Of a stretch of 64,000 bases of DNA, positions 33,430 through 59,866 are shown piece by piece; the first letter of the stretch is position 1, and every line of letters starts with the position of its first letter. Both the position numbers and the translations under genes were made by a program. Under the pieces are notes generated by a model. It worked only from the letters and a program-made list of their open reading frames with translations, searched no databases and was not told the DNA's origin. The stretch is from Tetradesmus obliquus. Taxonomy: Eukaryota > Chlorophyta > Chlorophyceae > Sphaeropleales > Scenedesmaceae. Where the stretch lies: positions 682,001-746,000 of the forward strand of contig CP126206.1 of assembly GCA_030272155.1 (NCBI GenBank), given 5' to 3'.

Positions 33430-33757
33430 ACACAGCTTCACACTGCATCCTCATGCAACACAGCTTCACACTGCATCCTCATGCAACACAGCTTCACACT
33501 GCATCCTCATGCAACACAGCTTCACACTGCATCCTCATGCAACACAGCTTCACACTGCATCCTCATGCAACACAGCTTCACACTGCATCCTCATGCAACA
33601 CAGCTTCACACTGCATCCTCATGCAACACAGCTTCACACTGCATCCTCATGCAACACAGCTTCACACTGCATCCTCATGCAACACAGCTTCACACTGCAT
33701 CCTCATGCAACACAGCTTCACACTGCATCCTCATGCAACACAGCTTCACACTGCATC
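33430..33757. repeat. 28-bp minisatellite, about 11-12 copies
   Basis: The unit starts CACAGCTTCACACTGCATCC and continues TCATGCAA. Copies are virtually identical. Because 28 is not a multiple of three the same peptide cycle appears in all plus frames, so the open frames over it are not genes. Confidence 0.95.
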
Positions 33758-34049
33758 ATCAACCTTCCACCAACTCACAGCTGTGGTAAGATCCATGCAA
33801 CCTATGCAAGTACTTCAGTTCAAGCACACGATCCAAGCACCCACTACCAACGGCAGCAGCGCTGATCAACGACACCAGGGTGCACCCCAGCCATACTGTT
33901 CAGCCGCTCAAATTCCTGTTATAAACATATTTGCATTTGCAAACATCGGGTACGGCATAATAGCCTATTCACTACCTCCCACCAGCCAAAGATGACGAAC
34001 GTAGATGCACAAAGCAGATGTCACATCAGATGCCACCTTGCACAGCATA

Positions 34050-39911: not shown

Positions 39912-42854
39912 GCTTTGCGAATGGTGCGCGCGGTCCTACCGATGCAATTACGATACAGTTTGAAAGTGTACGCTTGTTATTGGGCCGTCACGGCAGGGTG
40001 CCGTCTCTCAATCCAAAGCAGCGCTAGCAGGAGCCTGTTCTTATGAGCACGGGTGGCTAAGCTCGTCATTCATACAATAACCTAAAGTATGCTATGCAAC
40101 TACTTCGTCGATCACACAAGGAGAAAGCAAGAGCGGGCGTAATTGGCCAGGTTCGGCATGTAGGCAGCCGATTGGAACTGTCAGTAACGACTGAACGTGC
40201 GTCGGTCTGCCAGATAACAGCCGGCAAGCGGATTTTTGGAATGAAATGTTACACACAACGTGCAGATCTATCAGTTTTCAGGGCAGGGAACGCTTGCCAT
40301 GCTGCCTGAATTAGCAAATCAGCTGGTACAGTCACTGCTAGTGACCAATTGGTCACGTTGCAACGCCTCAGCCCATGGGCAGTGATAGTGATACATTGTT
40401 GCTTGATGCACAATGCATAACCTGGCATGAACCTGTATGGTGTAGACGTATCCTCTAGCACTGGTTCACGGCCCTGCACGACCAGGTGTGAGCTCAACAA
40501 CCTTACAGCCAGTTACACTGTCTAAGACGCTGTACCGCAGCTCTACTTCTAGTGCAGCCTGGGGACCCGGTAGCTTGTTGCAACGACATCAAACTTTGCT
40601 GGCAGTTCATGCAGGGTTTCTTCGGGTGAGTTGTTGCTCTGTCCTGTAGCATGTGAACCATCATGTCAAGCGATGCACCCGGTGCATGACGGTCATGACG
40701 GTCATGATGATCATGATGTAAAATGATGAATTCTAGACAAAGCCAGGATGCCGAAGCACGCTGGTCATGCACAGCTGCGCACCTTCAAGCAATGCTGAGC
40801 CAGAAGACCCCCGCCAAAGTCTCCTGGCACTCCGAGTGGTCATGATGTGGCCATGATGGCCAGGACCCCAAACTAGCTGTCGTGGCAGACCAGTACTGCA
40901 CTTGTGTTGCACATCACATGCTGGTGAATCGCCTGTGACAGCTTGATGTTGCAGCTTTGTGCTGCTGCCAGCTTACAAACTGCTGACACAAGTGCTGCTG
41001 CCAGCTTCAATGTTGCAGCTGAGCTGCTGCGCAGCGGCGCGCCGCAGCAACTGCTCATGGATTGAAGAGACAAAGCTATACAGTAACTGCACATGCACGC
41101 AATGAATGAATGAATGAATGAGCTACGCGTGGTGTGTTCACATATAACACGCGCGTAAGTTAAGGAAGGGGGCATGCACGCACCTTCAATCAGTGCTGGC
41201 CACCGCATGGTTGTGATGGCCACGTAGCCACATGGGTTCTCCTTCACGCCAGAGTTCTACAACTTGACCTAGGTTTTGGTTCTATGATTTTGCAGCTGAC
41301 ATCACGATGTATCTTGCCGACAGGGACGCCCGTAGTGGCGTCGCAGCCACTGCCAGCTGACCTGTGACGCGTGCATGTTGCGGGCATGTGCAACATTTGC
41401 TTGGTGAGCAGCCACAGCAGCAGTGCAATGCAGCCCAGGGGAGGGGAGAGTAATTCTTGAATCTGCGGAGCTGCATCGTCAGAAAGTGCAGCAACCCACA
41501 CGTATTGAGTGCAGCAACCCACACGTATGGCTGCAATTATAAGAAACTTATGGCTGCAAGAGAGGCAACAAGCTGCTAGCCGGCAATAGGCTGGCACTTG
41601 CCTGTGCATCCAGCTGCAGCTCTGCGCAAGCCTTCAAACCCTGCAGGGCAGGAGCACATGCAGCATGCGATGCAGCAGCACTACAGCCGTCAGCAACAGC
41701 TCTCCCTGCTCAGCAGCCAGCTCTTGATGCGAACCTGAGTCACCGAAGCAAATGATACCACCAAAAATCAAACCAAACCACACAAAAAACCGCAGCAAAT
41801 GATAACTCAGCAGCCAACTCTTGCCGCTAGCCTGCGGCTGGCGCCTGCTCAGCGCCGAGGCACCTCCAGCACAGCACCACCACCATTGCCTGTCACGCCA
41901 GCCTGCCGCCCGTTTCCTGCAAGCTGCGCTGCGCCATGCGCTGCGTGAGTGAGTGAGTGAGTGACTAACCAGGCAGCTCTGCAGCTCCTGGGTAAGTTAA
42001 GGCTAAGAGGGTGTGTGTGGCCATTCGCTGCGTGCCTGCCAAAACCCTGATCATGATCAGGTGCGTGCTGCCCACCCTGCCTGCCGCCTGCTGTGTGGGA
42101 GGCCTGCCACTGGCCAGTAGCTGGCAACAACATGTACGCATAGCGCTCCCTGTTGACCGAAGCAAATCAGCACTCAGCAGCCTCATGATGCTGTGTGTTC
42201 CGTTGACTTGCGTCAGGCCGCCTGATGGCATGCCATGCCATGGTCATGATGGCCAGTGCCACGGCCGGGCCGATGCGGCATGATCCCTGAACAATTCAGG
42301 CTGTTGCTTGCACTAGGTCTGCTTTGCATCCAGCTGCCGCATACTAAAACAGGATAACACGCAAAAACGCGTGTTGGTATTGGTTGCCTTCATGCGTGTC
42401 TTTGTCTGATTTCCAATCGGACGTGTCATCATGACCAGGGATGATCCCGGGGCTCTTTACCCTCGCTGAGGGACCCTGTCCTTTGCCCTCACGCTTAATT
42501 CCGCTCGCTTCAATGGGAGCGTAGACACTTTCACCTTTCAACCTTCTTTCGCTGAGGGTGAGTCAGCGCTTGGTCAGGGCCTGACTGGGGACAATCGGGA
42601 AAACAAACTACTATGCATCCTCTGGCCGTCTGCTGCCATAATGGTTTTTTTGGTCGACTTATCAGGATAGTTAACTATTAGCAGGTTACAGAAGAACCTA
42701 CATGAAGTGTAACCAGGGGTGGTTTCCGAGTGTCGCACGATGATGTAGGTGAATTCTACACAAATAACTTAGAACAAAGTTTTTTATTATTTTGCGTGTG
42801 ACGTGCATGGCGCTGGACTGTTGATCTAGAGGGTTCGTCCTTCCGCTCAGGACA
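39912..42854. other. Gene-free flank with dispersed repeat pieces
   Basis: Includes a copy (40,717-40,747) of the segment at 32,614-32,644. A (TGAA)n-linked segment at 41,100-41,175 recurs inverted at 868-937, and a related (TGAG)n segment lies at 41,945-42,020. Also present is a GGTCATGACGGTCATGATGA run at 40,690-40,720. No gene could be supported. Confidence 0.4.
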
Positions 42855-42884
42855 CAGCTGGGCATGGTACAAATGTAGCGAACA

Positions 42885-43274
42885 AGTGGCCTACATATAA
42901 ATGTCAAGCTTTCAACGACGAATCTAAATCAATTTGAGCTGTTAGCAGTGGCACAGTGTGCTGCAAGAAAAGTGCTAAAACACGTTGCCCTGAAGTGCCC
43001 CGACTCGGCTGTTACATATGTTAACTTGCGCTGTAGAGTGTTGCTGTGGGTGCTGCTGCCTGCAACATGTTTTGATGTGTATTGTAATTCTTCTGGGCTT
43101 CCCTTGCTGGCTGATCAGGCACTGCAGTTCTGGTGTGCCAAGTGCCCTGCCGCTGCTGTTGCGCTCTGCTGCTTGGCGCTGTGCGCTGCACATACAGTTT
43201 CAACTGTCATATCTGTTACATACTGCGCAACACCGCTTCAGGCCCACCGGCAGCTGCTGCGCGCGTGCAGCTAG
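42885..43274 (+). CDS. Unassigned open frame in the 4,280-bp unit (copy 1; repeats in every copy)
   Basis: An open frame from after TAG at 42,876 region to stop 43,274 reads KVLKHVALKCPDSAVTYVN and ADQALQFWCAKCPAAAVALC. It has no ATG at its start and no family I recognise. Another open stretch at 43,380-43,727 (plus) reads LCSWDASKPKQQHWQLCL and CPAETVIACQPLLQQF. These could be exons of a plus-strand gene upstream of the nuclease, since GT-AG candidates exist (for example donor AAAG|GTACGT at 44,109, acceptors TTTACAG near 43,991 and TTTCTTGCAG near 44,295), but no single consistent model emerged. Equivalent positions lie 4,280 bp apart in the other copies. Confidence 0.25.
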   Translation, partial: SGLHINVKLSTTNLNQFELLAVAQCAARKVLKHVALKCPDSAVTYVNLRCRVLLWVLLPATCFDVYCNSSGLPLLADQALQFWCAKCPAAAVALCCLALCAAHTVSTVISVTYCATPLQAHRQLLRACS

Positions 43275-44822
43275 TGTGGCTGCACAGAGTTTGTTGAGTA
43301 CTAGTATTCTACACAGTTTCCTGCAAACATCCTTCTTGTGTGATCAAGGCGAATTCTGGAGCTCAAAATTACTAGCAGTTTGGAGCTGCTGCTGCTGGCA
43401 GGTGAGGCCCTGCTGTGCAGTTGGGATGCAAGCAAACCAAAGCAGCAGCACTGGCAGCTGTGCCTTACTGTGCCTGCCACATACAGCAGGTTGCTATGCC
43501 AGCATGGCTGTCTGCTTGCAAGCTGTGTTGATTTGTTGCAAAATGCAGATGCTGCGTTTGTACCATGCCCAGCTGAGACTGTGATTGCATGCCAGCCTTT
43601 GCTGCAGCAGTTCTTAGCCTGCACTGCATCCCTTCTGTTGCTGTTCCTGGACTTGGTGCCTGAAGTGCACACCTACCTTTTTATGCTATGGCTGATGTGC
43701 TCCTGCTGCTGCTGGGTATGCAGCTGATTTTACTGCGGCAGTAGCACTGTTTGCAATCTATGATATCTGCCTGGGCAGGAGCAGCAGCAGCAGCAGACGA
43801 CAGGAAACGTTACAGCTATGTGTGCTTTGAATCACGGTGGCATGTGCTTTTCAACTGCAGTTGTTGGTGGGCGTGACAGCAGCAGCATGTGCCAGCAGGT
43901 GCCTCACTGCTGCTACCTAATTTTTTTGCGAAGGCTTTCAGTACAGCGCTGTGTTCAACGTCGTTTAATGTTCATTCCAAATTGTTTACAGGTGCTGCAG
44001 CAACGCGATTGAGCTGCAGTGCTCTGGACATCCGTGTTGACCCGTCAGGCTCACCTGCAACGTGGGCTTGCGAGGGCCCTTCAGGATTGGTTTTCTGCCT
44101 CAACCAAAGGTACGTTGCATAATGTGTCGACGATGATGAGTTGGCAGCGTGGCAGCTGTGTGGCTCGGAGCAGGCTTGTTTCAGGGCACCTTTCCGTCTT
44201 GAAGTTCTTCACCATACCGCAGTTTATTTCGGCTCGAGCCATGCTTAAATCAATCATCAAATATAAAAGTTAATTTACCGCAAGGTTTCTTGCAGGCTCC
44301 GTGCATAAAGCTTGGCAGGCCAACAGTCGTCACAACTCACGCGAGTGACAGCAGCAGGAGCCATGTTCAAGAGCTACGAGCGTAGTTGAATTATGCCAGG
44401 AATTTTTCCGTTACATTCGGCAATTCAGCATGACTGCAAATGCCTGTATGTGAAATGGCCACCAAGTGCCTTGCTGCCTTGCAGCAGTTGTTTGAAGCAG
44501 GAACCGCTCCTGACAAGTCTGAGCACCAAAGCACAACATCCACATGTAGTTTACTCATACAATAAGCTTCTGAACATGCCATTTTGTTCCCACACTCGCT
44601 CTCAGGTGAACACCAGGAAGTAACCACCCTACAGCAGCATGGTGCCAGCACCTCCCAAGCCCCGGGCGGTGCGAACATGCAGGACGGCGACAAGCGCAGG
44701 TGCCCTCAAACAGGTGAGCTCAAGGGCTCTCTGAGTGACACCCTGTGCACTGCTGGCTAGCCATCTTGCATGCAGCTGACAGCCACAATCCCTACATGCC
44801 ATGCAGCAGCACAACAGCAGAC

Positions 44823-47026
44823 TCAGCGCTGGTCTTTCCTGGGGTAGTCGCCAGCAGTGCCGCGGCGCTGCTTCCCGTCTCGGCACACACAAAGACTCCT
44901 CTTGCGGCTGCGCACCATGTTCCACAAATCTGGCAGCTTCAATACATCAGCCATGACAGATGCAGCTGTGATCTTCATAAAGGTGTTGTACAGGCCGTGC
45001 TGCAGGTCTCGCGGCTTCACATCAGCACCACCCAGCTGGCAGCTGTTATACAAGTAGTTGCGGAAGGCTGCTTTGAGGCTGCCAAATGCATGTTCAATGG
45101 GCTTGTTGAAATCTGGGGAGTAGGGTGCAAAGTGCAGCAGTTGATCTTCATTGATGCCACCTGCAACCAACATCTGTAGGCCATCCTTCCCCAGGTGAAC
45201 ACTTGGGTTGTCAAAGATGTACAGCGGCGTAGTGCCGCGCTGCGCCTGCTGTTGGTTGGCTATGTCTTTGATCTCCATCATGCAGTGAACAAACTCCAGC
45301 TGAGTCATGCTCTTGGCCTGCTGGGTTGGTTTGTCCTTCAACTGCAGGTGCAAGAATTGCCGGATTGGCAGCGCGCAGCCTTGTTAGCAGCGCAGGAGCG
45401 CAACGCAGCGGTGTGGATGGATGCGATGGGACGCTTCTACATCAGGCTCAGTGCAGACAAGGTCAGATACATCACCAAGTCTATGAGGGGGCAGAGATTG
45501 TTCTGGGGCTTGACTGGCTGCTTGCCAGGTGTGCAGCACTTCAAGTTCTGCGCGCCGCGTGCAGTCGCCACAGCAGCAGCGCTTCAGTGCAAGATGTGTG
45601 CATGTGTGCTGGCTGATATGGTTGGCACATGCATGGGCTACATGCACACAAGCGAGGAGCAGCTGGTGTGCATGCTGTACTGGTTAGGCACCAGCAGCAG
45701 TATGTGTGCTCAGGTAGCAGTGGACTGGTGGGATGGGCGGATTGATTTCCTCCATGCACAGCACAACATGCTGATTCAAGCTGATGGCTCATGTCATGAC
45801 AAGGGTTATTACAGCAGCAGCAGGCAGCTGGTGCTGGAGCGCGACTTTGAGTTCTGCGCTGCAGCATATGACAACTGGCTGCAGCCAGGGGGCAGTGTGC
45901 TGCGCGTGAGCACGCGCGGATGTGACATGCACCAATCCTTGCACATTGGTTTCCAGCTTGCTGCTGCAGGTGGTGTCATTGTACTGTCACCAAGTTACTC
46001 TGCTGTTATGTTCACAGCAGAGGACGGGCAGCGCTGCAGCTTCACTACAGCACTAAAAAAAGCACTGCGGGACTGTTACTACACAGTACAGCAGGGCTGG
46101 CATGTCTTTCAATGGCAGGCGCCTGCGCAGTAGCAGCGCACACTCACCATGTACGGTACATTGAGGTTGCCAACATGGTCCTTGTTGTCTGTTGTGCCGG
46201 TGACAAACTTGCAGTAGACGGGCCCGTGCACAGCGTTGACGGCGCAGACAAAGTGCAACTTGACCGGCTCTGCGTCCTTGCCCTTGCGCATCCATTTGCA
46301 TGGCAGCACAGCATGCACGTTTTCATCGTGTGCATCACAATAGACCTTGACGGAGCCGCCTGCCAGGTCTGACATCCAGAATTTGCACTCATCAATGAAA
46401 TATATGCGCTGCAGCATGTCGGGGTCACTTTGGTACTTCTGCCACAGCGCCGCAGCTGCTGCCTTTCGCCTTTGTTTCTGTATCTTTGTCAAGTCCAGCT
46501 TCACATCTATTCTCCTGCGCACCAGGTCGGGGTCAGCCCATTTCATGTACTTCAGCAGTCTCTTGGGTGTGATGTTGTAGTCAGTGCACAGCTGGCGCAG
46601 TGTGTCATTTTCCTGACATGCGACTTCGATTGAAGTCCACCACACGTGCACATCAACCTTTCTCTTTGATTCTGCAGATGGGTAGGCCTTTACCACCTTG
46701 CCAGCCTTGAATATTGTGCTGGCATGGAAGGCGACAGCATGTGGGACATTTGAGGGCCTGCCGCCATGCTTGGGTGTAGCCACTGTGCCGTTTGCTGTGA
46801 AGTTCTTGTGATGAAGTTTGCAGAACCGGTTCAGGTCCCCGTGTACCTCCTTGGCGTAGTCAGGGTACTGCTCTCTGTAATAATATGCGGGCGTAAACTT
46901 TTCGTCAGCTGTGGTCAAAGCCATTATCACACACACCACCGCCGCCACCCTCATGGCCGTGGTGCTGCGGTTGCTCTTCCATCCTGAAGGGTGCTTGCGC
47001 ACCATGGACAGCCCCCCTGCAGGCAT
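44823..47026 (-). CDS. Tc1/mariner/IS630-superfamily DDE transposase, copy 1 (two exons)
   Basis: Exon 1 is 47,026-46,148 and exon 2 is 45,341-44,823; 465 aa after removal of an 806-nt intron (donor ATG|GTGAGTGTGC, acceptor TTGCACCTGCAG|TTG, phase 0). Residues about 84-165 carry a HGGRPS motif and a helix-turn-helix-like segment (LRQLCTDYNITPKRLLKYMK). The catalytic triad is Asp212 (IYFIDECKFW), Asp337 (LYIFDNPSVHLG) and Glu376 (YSPDFNKPIEHAFGSLK), with 38 residues between the second Asp and the Glu; the usual NPIE is NKPIE. Such enzymes cut and rejoin DNA at transposon ends in the nucleus. No terminal inverted repeat was recognised. The intron separates the first catalytic Asp from the other two and contains an antisense nuclease gene. 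The start could also be Met8 or Met25. Confidence 0.85.
45417..46133 (+). CDS. Vsr/DUF559-like PD-(D/E)XK endonuclease, antisense within the transposase intron, copy 1
   Basis: A 238-aa frame lying wholly inside the transposase intron (45,342-46,147) on the opposite strand. Key pattern: SEEQLVCMLYWLG (Glu80/Glu81), then GRIDFLHAQHNMLIQADGSCH with Asp110, Gln121, Asp123 and His127, then ERDFEFCAAAYDNW and GGSVLRV. This is the order seen in the Vsr/DUF559 nuclease superfamily (E...DF...IEVDG..H...D...N...VLR), with Gln where many members have the catalytic Glu. A CKMCAC cysteine pair precedes it (58-63). The frame is open upstream to 45,195, over antisense transposase exon 2, so the true start is uncertain; I use ATG 45,417. 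The family assignment rests on motif spacing by eye. Possible roles are a homing-type nuclease mobilising the intron, a transposition helper, or a captured gene. Confidence 0.65.
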   Translation: MDAMGRFYIRLSADKVRYITKSMRGQRLFWGLTGCLPGVQHFKFCAPRAVATAAALQCKMCACVLADMVGTCMGYMHTSEEQLVCMLYWLGTSSSMCAQVAVDWWDGRIDFLHAQHNMLIQADGSCHDKGYYSSSRQLVLERDFEFCAAAYDNWLQPGGSVLRVSTRGCDMHQSLHIGFQLAAAGGVIVLSPSYSAVMFTAEDGQRCSFTTALKKALRDCYYTVQQGWHVFQWQAPAQ

Positions 47027-49102
47027 GAATCCAAAACATATGGATATGTTAGCTGTGCTTCTAGCAGCAGTGTGAACAGAAGTAACTGGTCAGGTCAAAC
47101 AACAGCCTGCGGCATCATGGAGTTTGACCGGTCTCAGCTGGGCATGGTACAAATGTAGCGAACAAGTGGCCTACATATAAATGTCAAGCTTTCAACGACG
47201 AATCTAAATCAATTTGAGCTGTTAGCAGTGGCACAGTGTGCTGCAAGAAAAGTGCTAAAACACGTTGCCCTGAAGTGCCCCGACTCGGCTGTTACATATG
47301 TTAACTTGCGCTGTAGAGTGTTGCTGTGGGTGCTGCTGCCTGCAACATGTTTTGATGTGTATTGTAATTCTTCTGGGCTTCCCTTGCTGGCTGATCAGGC
47401 ACTGCAGTTCTGGTGTGCCAAGTGCCCTGCCGCTGCTGTTGCGCTCTGCTGCTTGGCGCTGTGCGCTGCACATACAGTTTCAACTGTCATATCTGTTACA
47501 TACTGCGCAACACCGCTTCAGGCCCACCGGCAGCTGCTGCGCGCGTGCAGCTAGTGTGGCTGCACAGAGTTTGTTGAGTACTAGTATTCTACACAGTTTC
47601 CTGCAAACATCCTTCTTGTGTGATCAAGGCGAATTCTGGAGCTCAAAATTACTAGCAGTTTGGAGCTGCTGCTGCTGGCAGGTGAGGCCCTGCTGTGCAG
47701 TTGGGATGCAAGCAAACCAAAGCAGCAGCACTGGCAGCTGTGCCTTACTGTGCCTGCCACATACAGCAGGTTGCTATGCCAGCATGGCTGTCTGCTTGCA
47801 AGCTGTGTTGATTTGTTGCAAAATGCAGATGCTGCGTTTGTACCATGCCCAGCTGAGACTGTGATTGCATGCCAGCCTTTGCTGCAGCAGTTCTTAGCCT
47901 GCACTGCATCCCTTCTGTTGCTGTTCCTGGACTTGGTGCCTGAAGTGCACACCTACCTTTTTATGCTATGGCTGATGTGCTCCTGCTGCTGCTGGGTATG
48001 CAGCTGATTTTACTGCGGCAGTAGCACTGTTTGCAATCTATGATATCTGCCTGGGCAGGAGCAGCAGCAGCAGCAGACGACAGGAAACGTTACAGCTATG
48101 TGTGCTTTGAATCACGGTGGCATGTGCTTTTCAACTGCAGTTGTTGGTGGGCGTGACAGCAGCAGCATGTGCCAGCAGGTGCCTCACTGCTGCTACCTAA
48201 TTTTTTTGCGAAGGCTTTCAGTACAGCGCTGTGTTCAACGTCGTTTAATGTTCATTCCAAATTGTTTACAGGTGCTGCAGCAACGCGATTGAGCTGCAGT
48301 GCTCTGGACATCCGTGTTGACCCGTCAGGCTCACCTGCAACGTGGGCTTGCGAGGGCCCTTCAGGATTGGTTTTCTGCCTCAACCAAAGGTACGTTGCAT
48401 AATGTGTCGACGATGATGAGTTGGCAGCGTGGCAGCTGTGTGGCTCGGAGCAGGCTTGTTTCAGGGCACCTTTCCGTCTTGAAGTTCTTCACCATACCGC
48501 AGTTTATTTCGGCTCGAGCCATGCTTAAATCAATCATCAAATATAAAAGTTAATTTACCGCAAGGTTTCTTGCAGGCTCCGTGCATAAAGCTTGGCAGGC
48601 CAACAGTCGTCACAACTCACGCGAGTGACAGCAGCAGGAGCCATGTTCAAGAGCTACGAGCGTAGTTGAATTATGCCAGGAATTTTTCCGTTACATTCGG
48701 CAATTCAGCATGACTGCAAATGCCTGTATGTGAAATGGCCACCAAGTGCCTTGCTGCCTTGCAGCAGTTGTTTGAAGCAGGAACCGCTCCTGACAAGTCT
48801 GAGCACCAAAGCACAACATCCACATGTAGTTTACTCATACAATAAGCTTCTGAACATGCCATTTTGTTCCCACACTCGCTCTCAGGTGAACACCAGGAAG
48901 TAACCACCCTACAGCAGCATGGTGCCAGCACCTCCCAAGCCCCGGGCGGTGCGAACATGCAGGACGGCGACAAGCGCAGGTGCCCTCAAACAGGTGAGCT
49001 CAAGGGCTCTCTGAGTGACACCCTGTGCACTGCTGGCTAGCCATCTTGCATGCAGCTGACAGCCACAATCCCTACATGCCATGCAGCAGCACAACAGCAG
49101 AC

Positions 49103-51306
49103 TCAGCGCTGGTCTTTCCTGGGGTAGTCGCCAGCAGTGCCGCGGCGCTGCTTCCCGTCTCGGCACACACAAAGACTCCTCTTGCGGCTGCGCACCATGT
49201 TCCACAAATCTGGCAGCTTCAATACATCAGCCATGACAGATGCAGCTGTGATCTTCATAAAGGTGTTGTACAGGCCGTGCTGCAGGTCTCGCGGCTTCAC
49301 ATCAGCACCACCCAGCTGGCAGCTGTTATACAAGTAGTTGCGGAAGGCTGCTTTGAGGCTGCCAAATGCATGTTCAATGGGCTTGTTGAAATCTGGGGAG
49401 TAGGGTGCAAAGTGCAGCAGTTGATCTTCATTGATGCCACCTGCAACCAACATCTGTAGGCCATCCTTCCCCAGGTGAACACTTGGGTTGTCAAAGATGT
49501 ACAGCGGCGTAGTGCCGCGCTGCGCCTGCTGTTGGTTGGCTATGTCTTTGATCTCCATCATGCAGTGAACAAACTCCAGCTGAGTCATGCTCTTGGCCTG
49601 CTGGGTTGGTTTGTCCTTCAACTGCAGGTGCAAGAATTGCCGGATTGGCAGCGCGCAGCCTTGTTAGCAGCGCAGGAGCGCAACGCAGCGGTGTGGATGG
49701 ATGCGATGGGACGCTTCTACATCAGGCTCAGTGCAGACAAGGTCAGATACATCACCAAGTCTATGAGGGGGCAGAGATTGTTCTGGGGCTTGACTGGCTG
49801 CTTGCCAGGTGTGCAGCACTTCAAGTTCTGCGCGCCGCGTGCAGTCGCCACAGCAGCAGCGCTTCAGTGCAAGATGTGTGCATGTGTGCTGGCTGATATG
49901 GTTGGCACATGCATGGGCTACATGCACACAAGCGAGGAGCAGCTGGTGTGCATGCTGTACTGGTTAGGCACCAGCAGCAGTATGTGTGCTCAGGTAGCAG
50001 TGGACTGGTGGGATGGGCGGATTGATTTCCTCCATGCACAGCACAACATGCTGATTCAAGCTGATGGCTCATGTCATGACAAGGGTTATTACAGCAGCAG
50101 CAGGCAGCTGGTGCTGGAGCGCGACTTTGAGTTCTGCGCTGCAGCATATGACAACTGGCTGCAGCCAGGGGGCAGTGTGCTGCGCGTGAGCACGCGCGGA
50201 TGTGACATGCACCAATCCTTGCACATTGGTTTCCAGCTTGCTGCTGCAGGTGGTGTCATTGTACTGTCACCAAGTTACTCTGCTGTTATGTTCACAGCAG
50301 AGGACGGGCAGCGCTGCAGCTTCACTACAGCACTAAAAAAAGCACTGCGGGACTGTTACTACACAGTACAGCAGGGCTGGCATGTCTTTCAATGGCAGGC
50401 GCCTGCGCAGTAGCAGCGCACACTCACCATGTACGGTACATTGAGGTTGCCAACATGGTCCTTGTTGTCTGTTGTGCCGGTGACAAACTTGCAGTAGACG
50501 GGCCCGTGCACAGCGTTGACGGCGCAGACAAAGTGCAACTTGACCGGCTCTGCGTCCTTGCCCTTGCGCATCCATTTGCATGGCAGCACAGCATGCACGT
50601 TTTCATCGTGTGCATCACAATAGACCTTGACGGAGCCGCCTGCCAGGTCTGACATCCAGAATTTGCACTCATCAATGAAATATATGCGCTGCAGCATGTC
50701 GGGGTCACTTTGGTACTTCTGCCACAGCGCCGCAGCTGCTGCCTTTCGCCTTTGTTTCTGTATCTTTGTCAAGTCCAGCTTCACATCTATTCTCCTGCGC
50801 ACCAGGTCGGGGTCAGCCCATTTCATGTACTTCAGCAGTCTCTTGGGTGTGATGTTGTAGTCAGTGCACAGCTGGCGCAGTGTGTCATTTTCCTGACATG
50901 CGACTTCGATTGAAGTCCACCACACGTGCACATCAACCTTTCTCTTTGATTCTGCAGATGGGTAGGCCTTTACCACCTTGCCAGCCTTGAATATTGTGCT
51001 GGCATGGAAGGCGACAGCATGTGGGACATTTGAGGGCCTGCCGCCATGCTTGGGTGTAGCCACTGTGCCGTTTGCTGTGAAGTTCTTGTGATGAAGTTTG
51101 CAGAACCGGTTCAGGTCCCCGTGTACCTCCTTGGCGTAGTCAGGGTACTGCTCTCTGTAATAATATGCGGGCGTAAACTTTTCGTCAGCTGTGGTCAAAG
51201 CCATTATCACACACACCACCGCCGCCACCCTCATGGCCGTGGTGCTGCGGTTGCTCTTCCATCCTGAAGGGTGCTTGCGCACCATGGACAGCCCCCCTGC
51301 AGGCAT
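49103..51306 (-). CDS. DDE transposase, copy 2
   Basis: Exons 51,306-50,428 and 49,621-49,103. Protein sequence as in copy 1, including the DDE triad and intron junctions. Confidence 0.85.
49697..50413 (+). CDS. Vsr/DUF559-like nuclease, copy 2
   Basis: 238 aa, identical in translation to copy 1; lies inside the copy 2 transposase intron 49,622-50,427. Confidence 0.65.
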   Translation: MDAMGRFYIRLSADKVRYITKSMRGQRLFWGLTGCLPGVQHFKFCAPRAVATAAALQCKMCACVLADMVGTCMGYMHTSEEQLVCMLYWLGTSSSMCAQVAVDWWDGRIDFLHAQHNMLIQADGSCHDKGYYSSSRQLVLERDFEFCAAAYDNWLQPGGSVLRVSTRGCDMHQSLHIGFQLAAAGGVIVLSPSYSAVMFTAEDGQRCSFTTALKKALRDCYYTVQQGWHVFQWQAPAQ

Positions 51307-53382
51307 GAATCCAAAACATATGGATATGTTAGCTGTGCTTCTAGCAGCAGTGTGAACAGAAGTAACTGGTCAGGTCAAACAACAGCCTGCGGCATCATGG
51401 AGTTTGACCGGTCTCAGCTGGGCATGGTACAAATGTAGCGAACAAGTGGCCTACATATAAATGTCAAGCTTTCAACGACGAATCTAAATCAATTTGAGCT
51501 GTTAGCAGTGGCACAGTGTGCTGCAAGAAAAGTGCTAAAACACGTTGCCCTGAAGTGCCCCGACTCGGCTGTTACATATGTTAACTTGCGCTGTAGAGTG
51601 TTGCTGTGGGTGCTGCTGCCTGCAACATGTTTTGATGTGTATTGTAATTCTTCTGGGCTTCCCTTGCTGGCTGATCAGGCACTGCAGTTCTGGTGTGCCA
51701 AGTGCCCTGCCGCTGCTGTTGCGCTCTGCTGCTTGGCGCTGTGCGCTGCACATACAGTTTCAACTGTCATATCTGTTACATACTGCGCAACACCGCTTCA
51801 GGCCCACCGGCAGCTGCTGCGCGCGTGCAGCTAGTGTGGCTGCACAGAGTTTGTTGAGTACTAGTATTCTACACAGTTTCCTGCAAACATCCTTCTTGTG
51901 TGATCAAGGCGAATTCTGGAGCTCAAAATTACTAGCAGTTTGGAGCTGCTGCTGCTGGCAGGTGAGGCCCTGCTGTGCAGTTGGGATGCAAGCAAACCAA
52001 AGCAGCAGCACTGGCAGCTGTGCCTTACTGTGCCTGCCACATACAGCAGGTTGCTATGCCAGCATGGCTGTCTGCTTGCAAGCTGTGTTGATTTGTTGCA
52101 AAATGCAGATGCTGCGTTTGTACCATGCCCAGCTGAGACTGTGATTGCATGCCAGCCTTTGCTGCAGCAGTTCTTAGCCTGCACTGCATCCCTTCTGTTG
52201 CTGTTCCTGGACTTGGTGCCTGAAGTGCACACCTACCTTTTTATGCTATGGCTGATGTGCTCCTGCTGCTGCTGGGTATGCAGCTGATTTTACTGCGGCA
52301 GTAGCACTGTTTGCAATCTATGATATCTGCCTGGGCAGGAGCAGCAGCAGCAGCAGACGACAGGAAACGTTACAGCTATGTGTGCTTTGAATCACGGTGG
52401 CATGTGCTTTTCAACTGCAGTTGTTGGTGGGCGTGACAGCAGCAGCATGTGCCAGCAGGTGCCTCACTGCTGCTACCTAATTTTTTTGCGAAGGCTTTCA
52501 GTACAGCGCTGTGTTCAACGTCGTTTAATGTTCATTCCAAATTGTTTACAGGTGCTGCAGCAACGCGATTGAGCTGCAGTGCTCTGGACATCCGTGTTGA
52601 CCCGTCAGGCTCACCTGCAACGTGGGCTTGCGAGGGCCCTTCAGGATTGGTTTTCTGCCTCAACCAAAGGTACGTTGCATAATGTGTCGACGATGATGAG
52701 TTGGCAGCGTGGCAGCTGTGTGGCTCGGAGCAGGCTTGTTTCAGGGCACCTTTCCGTCTTGAAGTTCTTCACCATACCGCAGTTTATTTCGGCTCGAGCC
52801 ATGCTTAAATCAATCATCAAATATAAAAGTTAATTTACCGCAAGGTTTCTTGCAGGCTCCGTGCATAAAGCTTGGCAGGCCAACAGTCGTCACAACTCAC
52901 GCGAGTGACAGCAGCAGGAGCCATGTTCAAGAGCTACGAGCGTAGTTGAATTATGCCAGGAATTTTTCCGTTACATTCGGCAATTCAGCATGACTGCAAA
53001 TGCCTGTATGTGAAATGGCCACCAAGTGCCTTGCTGCCTTGCAGCAGTTGTTTGAAGCAGGAACCGCTCCTGACAAGTCTGAGCACCAAAGCACAACATC
53101 CACATGTAGTTTACTCATACAATAAGCTTCTGAACATGCCATTTTGTTCCCACACTCGCTCTCAGGTGAACACCAGGAAGTAACCACCCTACAGCAGCAT
53201 GGTGCCAGCACCTCCCAAGCCCCGGGCGGTGCGAACATGCAGGACGGCGACAAGCGCAGGTGCCCTCAAACAGGTGAGCTCAAGGGCTCTCTGAGTGACA
53301 CCCTGTGCACTGCTGGCTAGCCATCTTGCATGCAGCTGACAGCCACAATCCCTACATGCCATGCAGCAGCACAACAGCAGAC

Positions 53383-55586
53383 TCAGCGCTGGTCTTTCCT
53401 GGGGTAGTCGCCAGCAGTGCCGCGGCGCTGCTTCCCGTCTCGGCACACACAAAGACTCCTCTTGCGGCTGCGCACCATGTTCCACAAATCTGGCAGCTTC
53501 AATACATCAGCCATGACAGATGCAGCTGTGATCTTCATAAAGGTGTTGTACAGGCCGTGCTGCAGGTCTCGCGGCTTCACATCAGCACCACCCAGCTGGC
53601 AGCTGTTATACAAGTAGTTGCGGAAGGCTGCTTTGAGGCTGCCAAATGCATGTTCAATGGGCTTGTTGAAATCTGGGGAGTAGGGTGCAAAGTGCAGCAG
53701 TTGATCTTCATTGATGCCACCTGCAACCAACATCTGTAGGCCATCCTTCCCCAGGTGAACACTTGGGTTGTCAAAGATGTACAGCGGCGTAGTGCCGCGC
53801 TGCGCCTGCTGTTGGTTGGCTATGTCTTTGATCTCCATCATGCAGTGAACAAACTCCAGCTGAGTCATGCTCTTGGCCTGCTGGGTTGGTTTGTCCTTCA
53901 ACTGCAGGTGCAAGAATTGCCGGATTGGCAGCGCGCAGCCTTGTTAGCAGCGCAGGAGCGCAACGCAGCGGTGTGGATGGATGCGATGGGACGCTTCTAC
54001 ATCAGGCTCAGTGCAGACAAGGTCAGATACATCACCAAGTCTATGAGGGGGCAGAGATTGTTCTGGGGCTTGACTGGCTGCTTGCCAGGTGTGCAGCACT
54101 TCAAGTTCTGCGCGCCGCGTGCAGTCGCCACAGCAGCAGCGCTTCAGTGCAAGATGTGTGCATGTGTGCTGGCTGATATGGTTGGCACATGCATGGGCTA
54201 CATGCACACAAGCGAGGAGCAGCTGGTGTGCATGCTGTACTGGTTAGGCACCAGCAGCAGTATGTGTGCTCAGGTAGCAGTGGACTGGTGGGATGGGCGG
54301 ATTGATTTCCTCCATGCACAGCACAACATGCTGATTCAAGCTGATGGCTCATGTCATGACAAGGGTTATTACAGCAGCAGCAGGCAGCTGGTGCTGGAGC
54401 GCGACTTTGAGTTCTGCGCTGCAGCATATGACAACTGGCTGCAGCCAGGGGGCAGTGTGCTGCGCGTGAGCACGCGCGGATGTGACATGCACCAATCCTT
54501 GCACATTGGTTTCCAGCTTGCTGCTGCAGGTGGTGTCATTGTACTGTCACCAAGTTACTCTGCTGTTATGTTCACAGCAGAGGACGGGCAGCGCTGCAGC
54601 TTCACTACAGCACTAAAAAAAGCACTGCGGGACTGTTACTACACAGTACAGCAGGGCTGGCATGTCTTTTAATGGCAGGCGCCTGCGCAGTAGCAGCGCA
54701 CACTCACCATGTACGGTACATTGAGGTTGCCAACATGGTCCTTGTTGTCTGTTGTGCCGGTGACAAACTTGCAGTAGACGGGCCCGTGCACAGCGTTGAC
54801 GGCGCAGACAAAGTGCAACTTGACCGGCTCTGCGTCCTTGCCCTTGCGCATCCATTTGCATGGCAGCACAGCATGCACGTTTTCATCGTGTGCATCACAA
54901 TAGACCTTGACGGAGCCGCCTGCCAGGTCTGACATCCAGAATTTGCACTCATCAATGAAATATATGCGCTGCAGCATGTCGGGGTCACTTTGGTACTTCT
55001 GCCACAGCGCCGCAGCTGCTGCCTTTCGCCTTTGTTTCTGTATCTTTGTCAAGTCCAGCTTCACATCTATTCTCCTGCGCACCAGGTCGGGGTCAGCCCA
55101 TTTCATGTACTTCAGCAGTCTCTTGGGTGTGATGTTGTAGTCAGTGCACAGCTGGCGCAGTGTGTCATTTTCCTGACATGCGACTTCGATTGAAGTCCAC
55201 CACACGTGCACATCAACCTTTCTCTTTGATTCTGCAGATGGGTAGGCCTTTACCACCTTGCCAGCCTTGAATATTGTGCTGGCATGGAAGGCGACAGCAT
55301 GTGGGACATTTGAGGGCCTGCCGCCATGCTTGGGTGTAGCCACTGTGCCGTTTGCTGTGAAGTTCTTGTGATGAAGTTTGCAGAACCGGTTCAGGTCCCC
55401 GTGTACCTCCTTGGCGTAGTCAGGGTACTGCTCTCTGTAATAATATGCGGGCGTAAACTTTTCGTCAGCTGTGGTCAAAGCCATTATCACACACACCACC
55501 GCCGCCACCCTCATGGCCGTGGTGCTGCGGTTGCTCTTCCATCCTGAAGGGTGCTTGCGCACCATGGACAGCCCCCCTGCAGGCAT
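53383..55586 (-). CDS. DDE transposase, copy 3
   Basis: Exons 55,586-54,708 and 53,901-53,383. Translation as in copy 1; the single base change of this copy falls in the intron and so does not affect the transposase. Confidence 0.85.
53977..54672 (+). CDS. Vsr/DUF559-like nuclease, copy 3, seven residues shorter
   Basis: CAA becomes TAA at 54,670-54,672, so the protein is 231 aa and ends at WHVF instead of QWQAPAQ. All motif residues precede the change, so function may be kept. Confidence 0.65.
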   Translation: MDAMGRFYIRLSADKVRYITKSMRGQRLFWGLTGCLPGVQHFKFCAPRAVATAAALQCKMCACVLADMVGTCMGYMHTSEEQLVCMLYWLGTSSSMCAQVAVDWWDGRIDFLHAQHNMLIQADGSCHDKGYYSSSRQLVLERDFEFCAAAYDNWLQPGGSVLRVSTRGCDMHQSLHIGFQLAAAGGVIVLSPSYSAVMFTAEDGQRCSFTTALKKALRDCYYTVQQGWHVF

Positions 55587-57662
55587 GAATCCAAAACATA
55601 TGGATATGTTAGCTGTGCTTCTAGCAGCAGTGTGAACAGAAGTAACTGGTCAGGTCAAACAACAGCCTGCGGCATCATGGAGTTTGACCGGTCTCAGCTG
55701 GGCATGGTACAAATGTAGCGAACAAGTGGCCTACATATAAATGTCAAGCTTTCAACGACGAATCTAAATCAATTTGAGCTGTTAGCAGTGGCACAGTGTG
55801 CTGCAAGAAAAGTGCTAAAACACGTTGCCCTGAAGTGCCCCGACTCGGCTGTTACATATGTTAACTTGCGCTGTAGAGTGTTGCTGTGGGTGCTGCTGCC
55901 TGCAACATGTTTTGATGTGTATTGTAATTCTTCTGGGCTTCCCTTGCTGGCTGATCAGGCACTGCAGTTCTGGTGTGCCAAGTGCCCTGCCGCTGCTGTT
56001 GCGCTCTGCTGCTTGGCGCTGTGCGCTGCACATACAGTTTCAACTGTCATATCTGTTACATACTGCGCAACACCGCTTCAGGCCCACCGGCAGCTGCTGC
56101 GCGCGTGCAGCTAGTGTGGCTGCACAGAGTTTGTTGAGTACTAGTATTCTACACAGTTTCCTGCAAACATCCTTCTTGTGTGATCAAGGCGAATTCTGGA
56201 GCTCAAAATTACTAGCAGTTTGGAGCTGCTGCTGCTGGCAGGTGAGGCCCTGCTGTGCAGTTGGGATGCAAGCAAACCAAAGCAGCAGCACTGGCAGCTG
56301 TGCCTTACTGTGCCTGCCACATACAGCAGGTTGCTATGCCAGCATGGCTGTCTGCTTGCAAGCTGTGTTGATTTGTTGCAAAATGCAGATGCTGCGTTTG
56401 TACCATGCCCAGCTGAGACTGTGATTGCATGCCAGCCTTTGCTGCAGCAGTTCTTAGCCTGCACTGCATCCCTTCTGTTGCTGTTCCTGGACTTGGTGCC
56501 TGAAGTGCACACCTACCTTTTTATGCTATGGCTGATGTGCTCCTGCTGCTGCTGGGTATGCAGCTGATTTTACTGCGGCAGTAGCACTGTTTGCAATCTA
56601 TGATATCTGCCTGGGCAGGAGCAGCAGCAGCAGCAGACGACAGGAAACGTTACAGCTATGTGTGCTTTGAATCACGGTGGCATGTGCTTTTCAACTGCAG
56701 TTGTTGGTGGGCGTGACAGCAGCAGCATGTGCCAGCAGGTGCCTCACTGCTGCTACCTAATTTTTTTGCGAAGGCTTTCAGTACAGCGCTGTGTTCAACG
56801 TCGTTTAATGTTCATTCCAAATTGTTTACAGGTGCTGCAGCAACGCGATTGAGCTGCAGTGCTCTGGACATCCGTGTTGACCCGTCAGGCTCACCTGCAA
56901 CGTGGGCTTGCGAGGGCCCTTCAGGATTGGTTTTCTGCCTCAACCAAAGGTACGTTGCATAATGTGTCGACGATGATGAGTTGGCAGCGTGGCAGCTGTG
57001 TGGCTCGGAGCAGGCTTGTTTCAGGGCACCTTTCCGTCTTGAAGTTCTTCACCATACCGCAGTTTATTTCGGCTCGAGCCATGCTTAAATCAATCATCAA
57101 ATATAAAAGTTAATTTACCGCAAGGTTTCTTGCAGGCTCCGTGCATAAAGCTTGGCAGGCCAACAGTCGTCACAACTCACGCGAGTGACAGCAGCAGGAG
57201 CCATGTTCAAGAGCTACGAGCGTAGTTGAATTATGCCAGGAATTTTTCCGTTACATTCGGCAATTCAGCATGACTGCAAATGCCTGTATGTGAAATGGCC
57301 ACCAAGTGCCTTGCTGCCTTGCAGCAGTTGTTTGAAGCAGGAACCGCTCCTGACAAGTCTGAGCACCAAAGCACAACATCCACATGTAGTTTACTCATAC
57401 AATAAGCTTCTGAACATGCCATTTTGTTCCCACACTCGCTCTCAGGTGAACACCAGGAAGTAACCACCCTACAGCAGCATGGTGCCAGCACCTCCCAAGC
57501 CCCGGGCGGTGCGAACATGCAGGACGGCGACAAGCGCAGGTGCCCTCAAACAGGTGAGCTCAAGGGCTCTCTGAGTGACACCCTGTGCACTGCTGGCTAG
57601 CCATCTTGCATGCAGCTGACAGCCACAATCCCTACATGCCATGCAGCAGCACAACAGCAGAC

Positions 57663-59866
57663 TCAGCGCTGGTCTTTCCTGGGGTAGTCGCCAGCAGTGC
57701 CGCGGCGCTGCTTCCCGTCTCGGCACACACAAAGACTCCTCTTGCGGCTGCGCACCATGTTCCACAAATCTGGCAGCTTCAATACATCAGCCATGACAGA
57801 TGCAGCTGTGATCTTCATAAAGGTGTTGTACAGGCCGTGCTGCAGGTCTCGCGGCTTCACATCAGCACCACCCAGCTGGCAGCTGTTATACAAGTAGTTG
57901 CGGAAGGCTGCTTTGAGGCTGCCAAATGCATGTTCAATGGGCTTGTTGAAATCTGGGGAGTAGGGTGCAAAGTGCAGCAGTTGATCTTCATTGATGCCAC
58001 CTGCAACCAACATCTGTAGGCCATCCTTCCCCAGGTGAACACTTGGGTTGTCAAAGATGTACAGCGGCGTAGTGCCGCGCTGCGCCTGCTGTTGGTTGGC
58101 TATGTCTTTGATCTCCATCATGCAGTGAACAAACTCCAGCTGAGTCATGCTCTTGGCCTGCTGGGTTGGTTTGTCCTTCAACTGCAGGTGCAAGAATTGC
58201 CGGATTGGCAGCGCGCAGCCTTGTTAGCAGCGCAGGAGCGCAACGCAGCGGTGTGGATGGATGCGATGGGACGCTTCTACATCAGGCTCAGTGCAGACAA
58301 GGTCAGATACATCACCAAGTCTATGAGGGGGCAGAGATTGTTCTGGGGCTTGACTGGCTGCTTGCCAGGTGTGCAGCACTTCAAGTTCTGCGCGCCGCGT
58401 GCAGTCGCCACAGCAGCAGCGCTTCAGTGCAAGATGTGTGCATGTGTGCTGGCTGATATGGTTGGCACATGCATGGGCTACATGCACACAAGCGAGGAGC
58501 AGCTGGTGTGCATGCTGTACTGGTTAGGCACCAGCAGCAGTATGTGTGCTCAGGTAGCAGTGGACTGGTGGGATGGGCGGATTGATTTCCTCCATGCACA
58601 GCACAACATGCTGATTCAAGCTGATGGCTCATGTCATGACAAGGGTTATTACAGCAGCAGCAGGCAGCTGGTGCTGGAGCGCGACTTTGAGTTCTGCGCT
58701 GCAGCATATGACAACTGGCTGCAGCCAGGGGGCAGTGTGCTGCGCGTGAGCACGCGCGGATGTGACATGCACCAATCCTTGCACATTGGTTTCCAGCTTG
58801 CTGCTGCAGGTGGTGTCATTGTACTGTCACCAAGTTACTCTGCTGTTATGTTCACAGCAGAGGACGGGCAGCGCTGCAGCTTCACTACAGCACTAAAAAA
58901 AGCACTGCGGGACTGTTACTACACAGTACAGCAGGGCTGGCATGTCTTTCAATGGCAGGCGCCTGCGCAGTAGCAGCGCACACTCACCATGTACGGTACA
59001 TTGAGGTTGCCAACATGGTCCTTGTTGTCTGTTGTGCCGGTGACAAACTTGCAGTAGACGGGCCCGTGCACAGCGTTGACGGCGCAGACAAAGTGCAACT
59101 TGACCGGCTCTGCGTCCTTGCCCTTGCGCATCCATTTGCATGGCAGCACAGCATGCACGTTTTCATCGTGTGCATCACAATAGACCTTGACGGAGCCGCC
59201 TGCCAGGTCTGACATCCAGAATTTGCACTCATCAATGAAATATATGCGCTGCAGCATGTCGGGGTCACTTTGGTACTTCTGCCACAGCGCCGCAGCTGCT
59301 GCCTTTCGCCTTTGTTTCTGTATCTTTGTCAAGTCCAGCTTCACATCTATTCTCCTGCGCACCAGGTCGGGGTCAGCCCATTTCATGTACTTCAGCAGTC
59401 TCTTGGGTGTGATGTTGTAGTCAGTGCACAGCTGGCGCAGTGTGTCATTTTCCTGACATGCGACTTCGATTGAAGTCCACCACACGTGCACATCAACCTT
59501 TCTCTTTGATTCTGCAGATGGGTAGGCCTTTACCACCTTGCCAGCCTTGAATATTGTGCTGGCATGGAAGGCGACAGCATGTGGGACATTTGAGGGCCTG
59601 CCGCCATGCTTGGGTGTAGCCACTGTGCCGTTTGCTGTGAAGTTCTTGTGATGAAGTTTGCAGAACCGGTTCAGGTCCCCGTGTACCTCCTTGGCGTAGT
59701 CAGGGTACTGCTCTCTGTAATAATATGCGGGCGTAAACTTTTCGTCAGCTGTGGTCAAAGCCATTATCACACACACCACCGCCGCCACCCTCATGGCCGT
59801 GGTGCTGCGGTTGCTCTTCCATCCTGAAGGGTGCTTGCGCACCATGGACAGCCCCCCTGCAGGCAT
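57663..59866 (-). CDS. DDE transposase, copy 4
   Basis: Exons 59,866-58,988 and 58,181-57,663. Translation as in copy 1. Confidence 0.85.
58257..58973 (+). CDS. Vsr/DUF559-like nuclease, copy 4
   Basis: 238 aa, identical in translation to copy 1; inside intron 58,182-58,987. Confidence 0.65.
   Translation: MDAMGRFYIRLSADKVRYITKSMRGQRLFWGLTGCLPGVQHFKFCAPRAVATAAALQCKMCACVLADMVGTCMGYMHTSEEQLVCMLYWLGTSSSMCAQVAVDWWDGRIDFLHAQHNMLIQADGSCHDKGYYSSSRQLVLERDFEFCAAAYDNWLQPGGSVLRVSTRGCDMHQSLHIGFQLAAAGGVIVLSPSYSAVMFTAEDGQRCSFTTALKKALRDCYYTVQQGWHVFQWQAPAQ

What the first reader, a model, noticed from the sequence alone, without database searches (positions are those of the whole stretch)
45342..46147. A complete antisense nuclease gene sits inside the intron that splits the transposase catalytic core
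The transposase frame breaks between its first and second catalytic Asp at a clean GT-AG intron (donor GTGAGTGTGC, acceptor CACCTGCAG, phase 0). The 806-nt intron is almost filled by a 238-aa opposite-strand frame with Vsr/DUF559-like motifs (IDF, IQADGSCH, ERDF, SVLRV). Homing nucleases in group I introns and inteins follow this logic, but a Vsr-type nuclease antisense within a spliceosomal intron of a DDE transposase is not something I know to be described. It could home into intron-less transposases, assist excision, or represent a composite selfish element.
Basis: partly seen in the sequence, partly recalled or inferred. Interest (0 to 1): 0.9.

Follow-up and report, generated by a model that had tools for sequence, protein, structure and literature searches.

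The report
Composite transposon with intron-nested nuclease-like frame
In what looks like a green-alga genome, a DNA transposon that has spread as tandem arrays of near-identical copies carries a nuclease-like reading frame backwards inside an intron of its own transposase gene, an arrangement that joins two recently described kinds of selfish DNA, although the nuclease itself is unproven and may no longer be working.

Summary
The geometry is right. The transposase frame (minus strand) is split between its first and second catalytic Asp by an 806-nt GT-AG, phase-0 intron, and a 238-codon opposite-strand frame fills 89% of it. Splice sites are identical in 27 of 27 aligned copies.

The window enters a 10-unit tandem array. 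Single copies elsewhere are 5-kb composite-like transposons: a 721-bp terminal direct repeat (TDR) with inverted ends, a 3,559-bp body, a second TDR. A 29-mer of the frame occurs at 163 places. Matching 3-bp duplications flank 13 of 16 single copies and 9 of 9 arrays tested. TDRs excise, leaving CAG or CTG (28 of 29 joints found). This is the KolobokP architecture with an unrelated, IS630-like transposase.

The "nuclease" is weakly supported: it ranks first of 266 window frames and above 1,000 shuffles with a DUF559 profile, but has no curated hit, has Gln at a catalytic Glu position, could not be folded, and evolves neutrally (omega about 1.5; transposase about 0.5).

Nucleases in spliceosomal introns ("shintrons") were reported in mirusviruses in 2025. 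This is a candidate in a cellular transposon, perhaps decayed. New variant of a known kind.

The parts
42855..43575 (+). Terminal direct repeat (TDR), 721 bp, first of the array; inverted ends CAGCTGGGCATGGTACAAA.. (42855-42879) and ..TTTGTACCATGCCCAGCTG (43551-43575)
   Evidence: left edge of the 4,280-bp periodicity is 42855; same segment bounds single copies at both ends elsewhere
42852..42854 (.). Target-site duplication ACA, left side of the array; right side ACA lies outside the window just after C16:768375
43576..47134 (-). Body (internal region) of unit 1, 3,559 bp
46148..47089 (-). Transposase exon 1, open frame (start codon not determined); first catalytic Asp
45342..46147 (-). Intron, GT-AG, phase 0, 806 nt; no Rfam match at E<=1, so no group I or II intron recognised
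44823..45341 (-). Transposase exon 2 with stop; second Asp and Glu (38 residues between); DDE_3 E=2.2e-5 (below cut-off), IS630 E=2.1e-4 (below cut-off)
45417..46133 (+). 238-codon DUF559-like (PD-(D/E)XK-like) frame antisense in the intron; open upstream to 45180
47135..51414 (-). Array unit 2 (TDR 47135-47855 + body)
   Evidence: identical to unit 1
51415..55694 (-). Array unit 3; one base differs (54670), making nuclease-frame codon 232 a stop
55695..59974 (-). Array unit 4
59975..64000 (-). Array unit 5, cut by the window end; the array runs on to C16:768375 (ten units and a closing TDR)

Best explanation
A composite-like cut-and-paste DNA transposon. SHOWN by sequence: TDR-body-TDR structure; 3-bp target duplications; arrays (TDR-body)n-TDR sitting inside single target duplications; loss of single TDRs leaving CAG or CTG; a transposase split by one GT-AG intron, with more synonymous change than expected in both exons. 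INFERRED: the IS630-like transposase cuts at any pair of CAG..CTG ends, moving the 5-kb unit or taking out one TDR with a 3-nt staggered break of the Tc1/mariner sort. The breaks, and recombination between TDRs, let a single insertion grow in place into an array. The antisense frame in the intron descends from a DUF559-like (PD-(D/E)XK) nuclease gene. My preferred reading is that it entered as a homing-type passenger: a nuclease gene placed where splicing removes it from the transposase message. There it could cut element copies and spread by break repair with co-conversion of the flanking exons, and add to array growth as proposed for the KolobokP nuclease. Since every copy that I examined now carries it, selection on it has lapsed and it is drifting.
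For: Architecture and TSDs: (13 of 16 single loci, 9 of 9 arrays with both ends in hand). Footprints: 29 joints = 17 CAG, 11 CTG, 1 CACTG, at nine loci, so not all independent. Splice sites 27 of 27. Exon selection: (pooled omega 0.49, P=0.002). DUF559-like signal: (first of 266 frames, above 1,000 shuffles); motif pattern 0 in 10 Mb random. Homing-like tract: fixed differences between copy group C (5 rows) and the others (16 rows) are 15 in the outer 615 bp but 2 in the middle 1,649 bp that holds the whole intron (synonymous: 10 in 139 sites outside; 0 in 180 exon sites inside). Lapsed selection fits the homing-nuclease life cycle (PMC13405050, abstract and passages).
Against: Nuclease activity is unproven: no hit in Pfam, NCBIfam or PADLOC, a meaningless one in PHROGs, own-genome search with Pfam DUF559 empty at E<=1, hhalign probability 26% and only just above the best of 100 shuffles (27.5 against 25.2), alignment columns no better than shuffles, Gln at the catalytic Glu column, folds at pLDDT 30 and 47.5 and no PD-(D/E)XK nuclease recognisable among the 50 PDB matches listed. 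No purifying selection on it: 11 synonymous of 55 changes, 14.7 expected under neutrality; omega 0.5 rejected at P=0.0005. No joined-exon site found here to serve as a homing target. The intron is inside the tract but is not its lowest point (2 fixed differences; other 806-bp windows have 1), and a random tract of that length would cover the intron by chance roughly four times in ten (my estimate). Exon 1 is broken in 4 of 22 rows that cover it.
Confidence: 0.4

Rival explanations
1. Composite transposon as above, but the intron frame has no part in its life: array growth and homogenisation come from transposase-made breaks at TDR ends plus ordinary unequal crossing-over between TDRs. The frame is a dead passenger.
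For: TDR excision footprints inside arrays show that breaks were made there at the TDR ends; the frame shows no purifying selection while the transposase does; one single copy and one array (L010, L011) carry a frameshift near codon 213, two other rows a stop at codon 232, one a stop at codon 30.
Against: Four of those five lesions lie downstream of the DUF559-like core; residues 72-190 hold no stop or frameshift in any of 27 rows, though 0 stops against 1.5 expected is not significant (P=0.21). A weak nuclease signal placed exactly in the intron needs some origin.
Confidence: 0.33
2. The frame is not a gene at all: a chance open frame in a long CAG-rich intron, with motifs picked out by eye.
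For: Length is unremarkable for this genome; substitutions look neutral in this frame; no curated family match; a multiple alignment with DUF559 proteins keeps no more conserved columns than shuffles do (12 against up to 14); shuffles reach 9.2 bits with the small Vsr profile, so 11.7 bits is not a large score.
Against: Best of 266 window frames and of 1,000 shuffles with a DUF559 profile built without it; ordered motif absent from 10 Mb random sequence.
Confidence: 0.22
3. The split is not an intron but a frame-disrupting insertion in a dead transposase.
For: No transcript evidence; exon 1 has nonsense or frameshift lesions in 4 of 22 rows.
Against: GT-AG and phase 0, splice sites 27 of 27 identical, synonymous excess in both exons, the frame's 29-mer at 163 places, triad complete only when spliced.
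Confidence: 0.05

Closest known systems
KolobokP composite-like DNA transposons (Kojima and Bao 2022, PMC9587614; parts 1-4 of 6 read)
   Same: Body flanked by long terminal direct repeats with their own short inverted ends (theirs about 450 or 660 bp, here 721); arrays (LTDR-INT)n-LTDR within one target duplication; single-repeat excision giving INT-INT joints; DDD/E transposase plus a nuclease on the complementary strand; short duplications without a fixed target.
   Different: Transposase is IS630-like, DD38E, without Kolobok's C/DxxH motif; excision leaves 3 nt (CAG/CTG) whereas KolobokP loses 3-4 bp; nuclease-like frame is DUF559-like, not His-Me finger, and lies inside a transposase intron, not downstream; KolobokP is reported from animals; solo repeats are common there and seem few here, though I did not resolve this place by place.
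Shintrons, spliceosomal homing introns of mirusviruses (PMC12768974; abstract, passages and section 9 read)
   Same: GT-AG spliceosomal-type intron without group I or II signature holding an endonuclease-like gene; VSR-like (16) and PD-(D/E)XK (15) types are among their 334; recurrent residence in particular genes.
   Different: Cellular transposon rather than a virus; frame antisense to the host gene (the section read does not state their orientation); nuclease identity weaker; no intron-free homologue found.
IS630-Tc1-mariner transposons
   Same: DDE_3/IS630 profile matches in exon 2 and triad motifs; CAG..CTG ends and CAG/CTG footprints as recalled for Tc1 and Sleeping Beauty.
   Different: 3-bp duplications of varied sequence, not TA; profile scores below curated cut-offs.
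DUF559 / YcjD (PF04480)
   Same: Ordered core DF..xDGxxH..R..VLR.
   Different: Gln for the conserved Glu; no match with the Pfam model; extra N- and C-terminal parts.
Nuclear group I introns with antisense homing genes (Didymium, PMC9548176; abstract read)
   Same: Homing gene antisense within an intron.
   Different: Self-splicing group I intron in rDNA and a proven nuclease; neither was found here (Rfam 0 matches).

Membership tests
KolobokP | Long terminal direct repeats each with own inverted ends | tested here: met
KolobokP | Multimers sharing repeats inside one target duplication | tested here: met
   9 of 9 arrays with both ends fetched; other arrays not examined
KolobokP | Kolobok transposase with C/DxxH between second D and E | tested here: not met
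   no such motif in the 38 residues between D358 and E397 (read by eye); only profile match is DDE_3
KolobokP | His-Me finger nuclease | tested here: not met
   no such Pfam match; weak DUF559-like signal instead
Shintron (spliceosomal homing intron) | GT-AG intron without group I/II signature | tested here: met
   splicing itself not shown
Shintron (spliceosomal homing intron) | Nested endonuclease of a homing type | tested here: inconclusive
Shintron (spliceosomal homing intron) | Intron-free homologous sites exist | tested here: not met
   0 joined-exon sites with up to 3 mismatches in the own genome; other algae not searchable
IS630-Tc1-mariner | DDE_3/IS630-type catalytic domain | tested here: inconclusive
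   E=2.2e-5 and 2.1e-4 but below cut-offs
IS630-Tc1-mariner | TA target duplication | tested here: not met
   3-bp duplications of many sequences
IS630-Tc1-mariner | 2-3-nt excision footprint from the element ends (recalled) | tested here: met
   28 of 29 joints CAG or CTG
DUF559 nuclease | Match above the family cut-off | tested here: not met
   own profile 11.7 bits
Vsr nuclease | Vsr profile match | tested here: not met
   6-sequence Vsr profile: frame not among the 8 rows printed
Homing endonuclease | Site-specific DNA cutting | not testable with these tools
   needs an assay

The most novel reading that the evidence does not exclude
A spliceosomal homing intron in a cellular genome that parasitises a transposon: a PD-(D/E)XK nuclease gene encoded antisense in the transposase intron cuts element copies, spreads itself by break repair with co-conversion of the flanking exons (the 1.65-kb homogenised tract), and by cutting within arrays drives their growth to tens of units, so one selfish element rides and amplifies another without costing it its transposase.
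Probability: 0.25. Interest if true: 0.87.

Novelty: new variant of a known kind. Interest (0 to 1): 0.6.

Why it matters
Composite-like transposons with terminal direct repeats and a nuclease were reported from one transposase superfamily in animals. The same design with an unrelated transposase, in what looks like a green alga, suggests the design evolved more than once and that array growth is part of it. If the intron frame is a real homing nuclease, it would show that homing genes can live in ordinary spliceosomal introns of cellular DNA, as proposed for mirusviruses, and would bear on where large introns and tandem transposon arrays come from. The CAG/CTG footprints make excision directly testable.

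Tried and rejected
Close relatives elsewhere: none for the frame in viral or genome contigs, none for either exon in viral contigs; those scans use short exact peptide patterns and see close relatives only. Own-genome nuclease relatives by a degenerate motif: three hits against three for the reversed-pattern control; two translate to short unrelated frames and the third motif was not located by my script. Of five DDE_3 loci in the genome I fetched three (L029-L031); none resembles this element (tblastn best E=0.23). Group I/II intron: no Rfam match at E<=1. Structure: single-sequence model pLDDT 30.4; model on 30 aligned sequences 47.5, guided by assumed homologues and so partly circular; its best PDB match has E=0.69. 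MAFFT conserved-column count did not beat shuffles and is not used as support, although the alignment looks attractive. Sliding diversity first suggested the intron is specially conserved; codon analysis points to recency or conversion, not protein constraint. L012 was dropped from the second diversity run because its left repeat is rearranged; partial rows were left out. The count of repeat ends (361) hints at few solo TDRs but was not resolved place by place. Positive selection on the frame (core omega 3.2, P=0.02) is not claimed: one of several tests.

Full report
What is there. The window is C16:682001-746000 of an unnamed 104.66-Mb, 17-contig genome; that it is a green alga is my inference from composition and gene structure, not from a call. 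On the minus strand an IS630-like transposase frame runs 47089-46148, breaks at a GT-AG, phase-0 intron (46147-45342, 806 nt) and continues 45341-44826. The catalytic residues are D233 in exon 1 and D358 and E397 in exon 2, 38 residues between the last two. Exon 2 matches DDE_3 at E=2.2e-5 and IS630 at 2.1e-4, both under the curated cut-offs; the spliced protein adds nothing. Donor GTGAGTGTGC and acceptor ACCTGCAG are the same in 27 of 27 aligned rows (21 distinct full-length haplotypes from 33 copies, plus 6 of the partial copies).

From 42855 the window is a tandem array with a 4,280-bp period, five units visible, identical but for one base. With both ends located (C16:724855 to 768375) the length equals exactly ten units plus a closing 721-bp repeat. 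Single copies elsewhere are about 5,000 bp: a 721-bp terminal direct repeat (TDR), a 3,559-bp body, and a second TDR; each TDR has inverted ends starting CAGCTGGGCATGGTACAAA. Matching 3-bp target duplications flank 13 of 16 single loci examined (not L012, L013, L017; read from the flanks) and 9 of 9 arrays for which I fetched both ends; for two further arrays one end was missed and several arrays were not examined. So these arrays grew in place from one insertion or entered as one piece. A 29-mer of the nuclease-like frame occurs at 163 places (the first 100 listed are exact).

Excision. In many arrays two bodies abut without a TDR. A genome-wide pattern search with exact flanks and a gap of 0-12 bases found 29 such joints at nine loci: 17 read GGTCT-CAG-AGACTG, 11 read GGTCT-CTG-AGACTG, one has CACTG. 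Joints copied within one array are not independent, but the C3, C5 (1.16-1.27 Mb), C12 and C16 (0.92 Mb) arrays each hold more than one kind. Three terminal nucleotides left in either strand's form is what, from memory, Tc1/mariner enzymes such as Sleeping Beauty leave. KolobokP joints instead lose 3-4 bp (PMC9587614). Part of the chromosome-12 array largely alternates 4,280- and 3,562-bp units, and its joints are of both kinds, so that pattern is not one excision simply copied along.

The frame in the intron. It is 238 codons from ATG, 317 stop to stop. Length by itself means little here. To test this objectively I fetched E. coli YcjD (DUF559) and Vsr, collected relatives (80 and 6 loci), built profiles from 75 and 6 of them and scored the 266 frames of 80 codons or more in window 1-47158, and 1,000 shuffles. 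The DUF559 profile puts the intron frame first (E=0.0033; next 1.4) and above every shuffle (11.7 against 6.4 bits). With the Vsr profile it is not among the rows printed, and shuffles there reach 9.2 bits, a reminder that 11.7 is a small score. Pfam's own DUF559 model finds nothing in this genome at E<=1. hhalign gives probability 26% and a score just over the best of 100 shuffles. A simple conserved-column count after MAFFT does not separate it from shuffles. AlphaFold failed, and I see no PD-(D/E)XK nuclease by title among the 50 of 334 PDB matches listed for the better model, all with E of 0.69 or more. The likeliest reading is a DUF559-like core that is divergent or degraded, with Gln for the usual Glu; a chance resemblance is not excluded.

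Selection. Among the 27 rows, changes in exon 1 and exon 2 favour synonymous sites (19 of 47, and 13 of 28; pooled omega 0.49, P=0.002), although exon 1 also has 3 nonsense changes (1.4 expected) and is broken in 4 of the 22 rows that cover it. The intron frame has 11 synonymous of 55 with 14.7 expected under neutrality (omega 1.46, not different from 1). The same data reject omega 0.5 for it (P=0.0005). One haplotype found at two loci carries D110N at the putative catalytic Asp. The full frame is open in 22 of 27 rows; of the five others, two have a frameshift near codon 213, two a stop at 232 and one a stop at 30. So the frame shows no sign of being kept by selection now, in contrast to the transposase.

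A possible trace of homing. Copies fall into groups. Group C (five full-length rows) differs from the other 16 full-length rows by 17 fixed sites: 8 in the outer 343 bp of exon 2, 7 in the outer 272 bp of exon 1, 2 in the 1,649 bp between, which hold the whole intron. At synonymous sites this is 10 of 139 outside against 0 of 180 in the inner exon parts. The middle was therefore probably exchanged after the groups split. Intron homing leaves such co-conversion around the intron, but ordinary gene conversion would too; the intron is not the lowest point of the tract, and I estimate that a random tract of this size would cover the intron roughly four times in ten. No joined-exon site was found here.

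How it most likely works. The transposase cuts at CAG..CTG ends; because each TDR has both ends, the unit can move whole or lose one TDR. Breaks and direct repeats make in-place array growth easy. Kojima and Bao propose that the KolobokP nuclease induces unequal crossover; here the transposase's own breaks would suffice, so the nuclease is not needed to explain arrays. I favour an origin of the frame as a homing-type passenger, sheltered by splicing, now drifting after reaching the copies that I examined; confidence 0.4 for the whole chain, much higher for the anatomy.

Novelty. Two published systems bracket it: KolobokP (PMC9587614, parts 1-4 of 6 read) and mirusvirus shintrons (PMC12768974, abstract, passages and section 9 read), whose authors state that such nucleases had not been seen in spliceosomal introns before. 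My paper searches, several with capped lists of which I saw titles and abstract openings only, showed no IS630-like composite transposon with terminal direct repeats and no homing-type gene in a transposase intron; the library lacks most subscription journals, and Repbase could not be searched. I rate it a new variant of a known kind.

Noticed in passing
L027 (C3:7155500-7165400) and C3:7158670-7213596: The C3 array holds bodies in both orientations between TDRs; at the one junction read, the flip lies at the inverted repeat end of the TDR.
   Followed up: partly
C12:3979450-4041983 (L026): Higher-order array in which units of 4,280 and 3,562 bp largely alternate.
   Followed up: partly
window 43576-44826: The left part of the body differs more between copies (about 3.8%) than exons and intron (about 0.8%) or the repeats (1.7-1.9%) (12 copies).
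   Followed up: partly
L030 1-712 and 1829-2540: A 712-bp perfect inverted repeat lies near an unrelated DDE_3 transposase frame in the same genome.
   Followed up: no
L029 3568-4938: A 456-codon frame that looks to me like a LINE-type endonuclease region overlaps, in another frame of the same strand, an unrelated DDE_3 frame (the label is recalled, no search run).
   Followed up: no
L012 and L013 (C6:5916000-5924500, C6:5865000-5873000): Rearranged copies with an inverted or truncated TDR and no matching target duplication; TDR ends read CAGCTAGGTATGG.
   Followed up: partly
window 10134-11106 and 33427-33761: Long minisatellites of 36-bp (27 copies) and 28-bp (12 copies, 99% match) units.
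   Followed up: no
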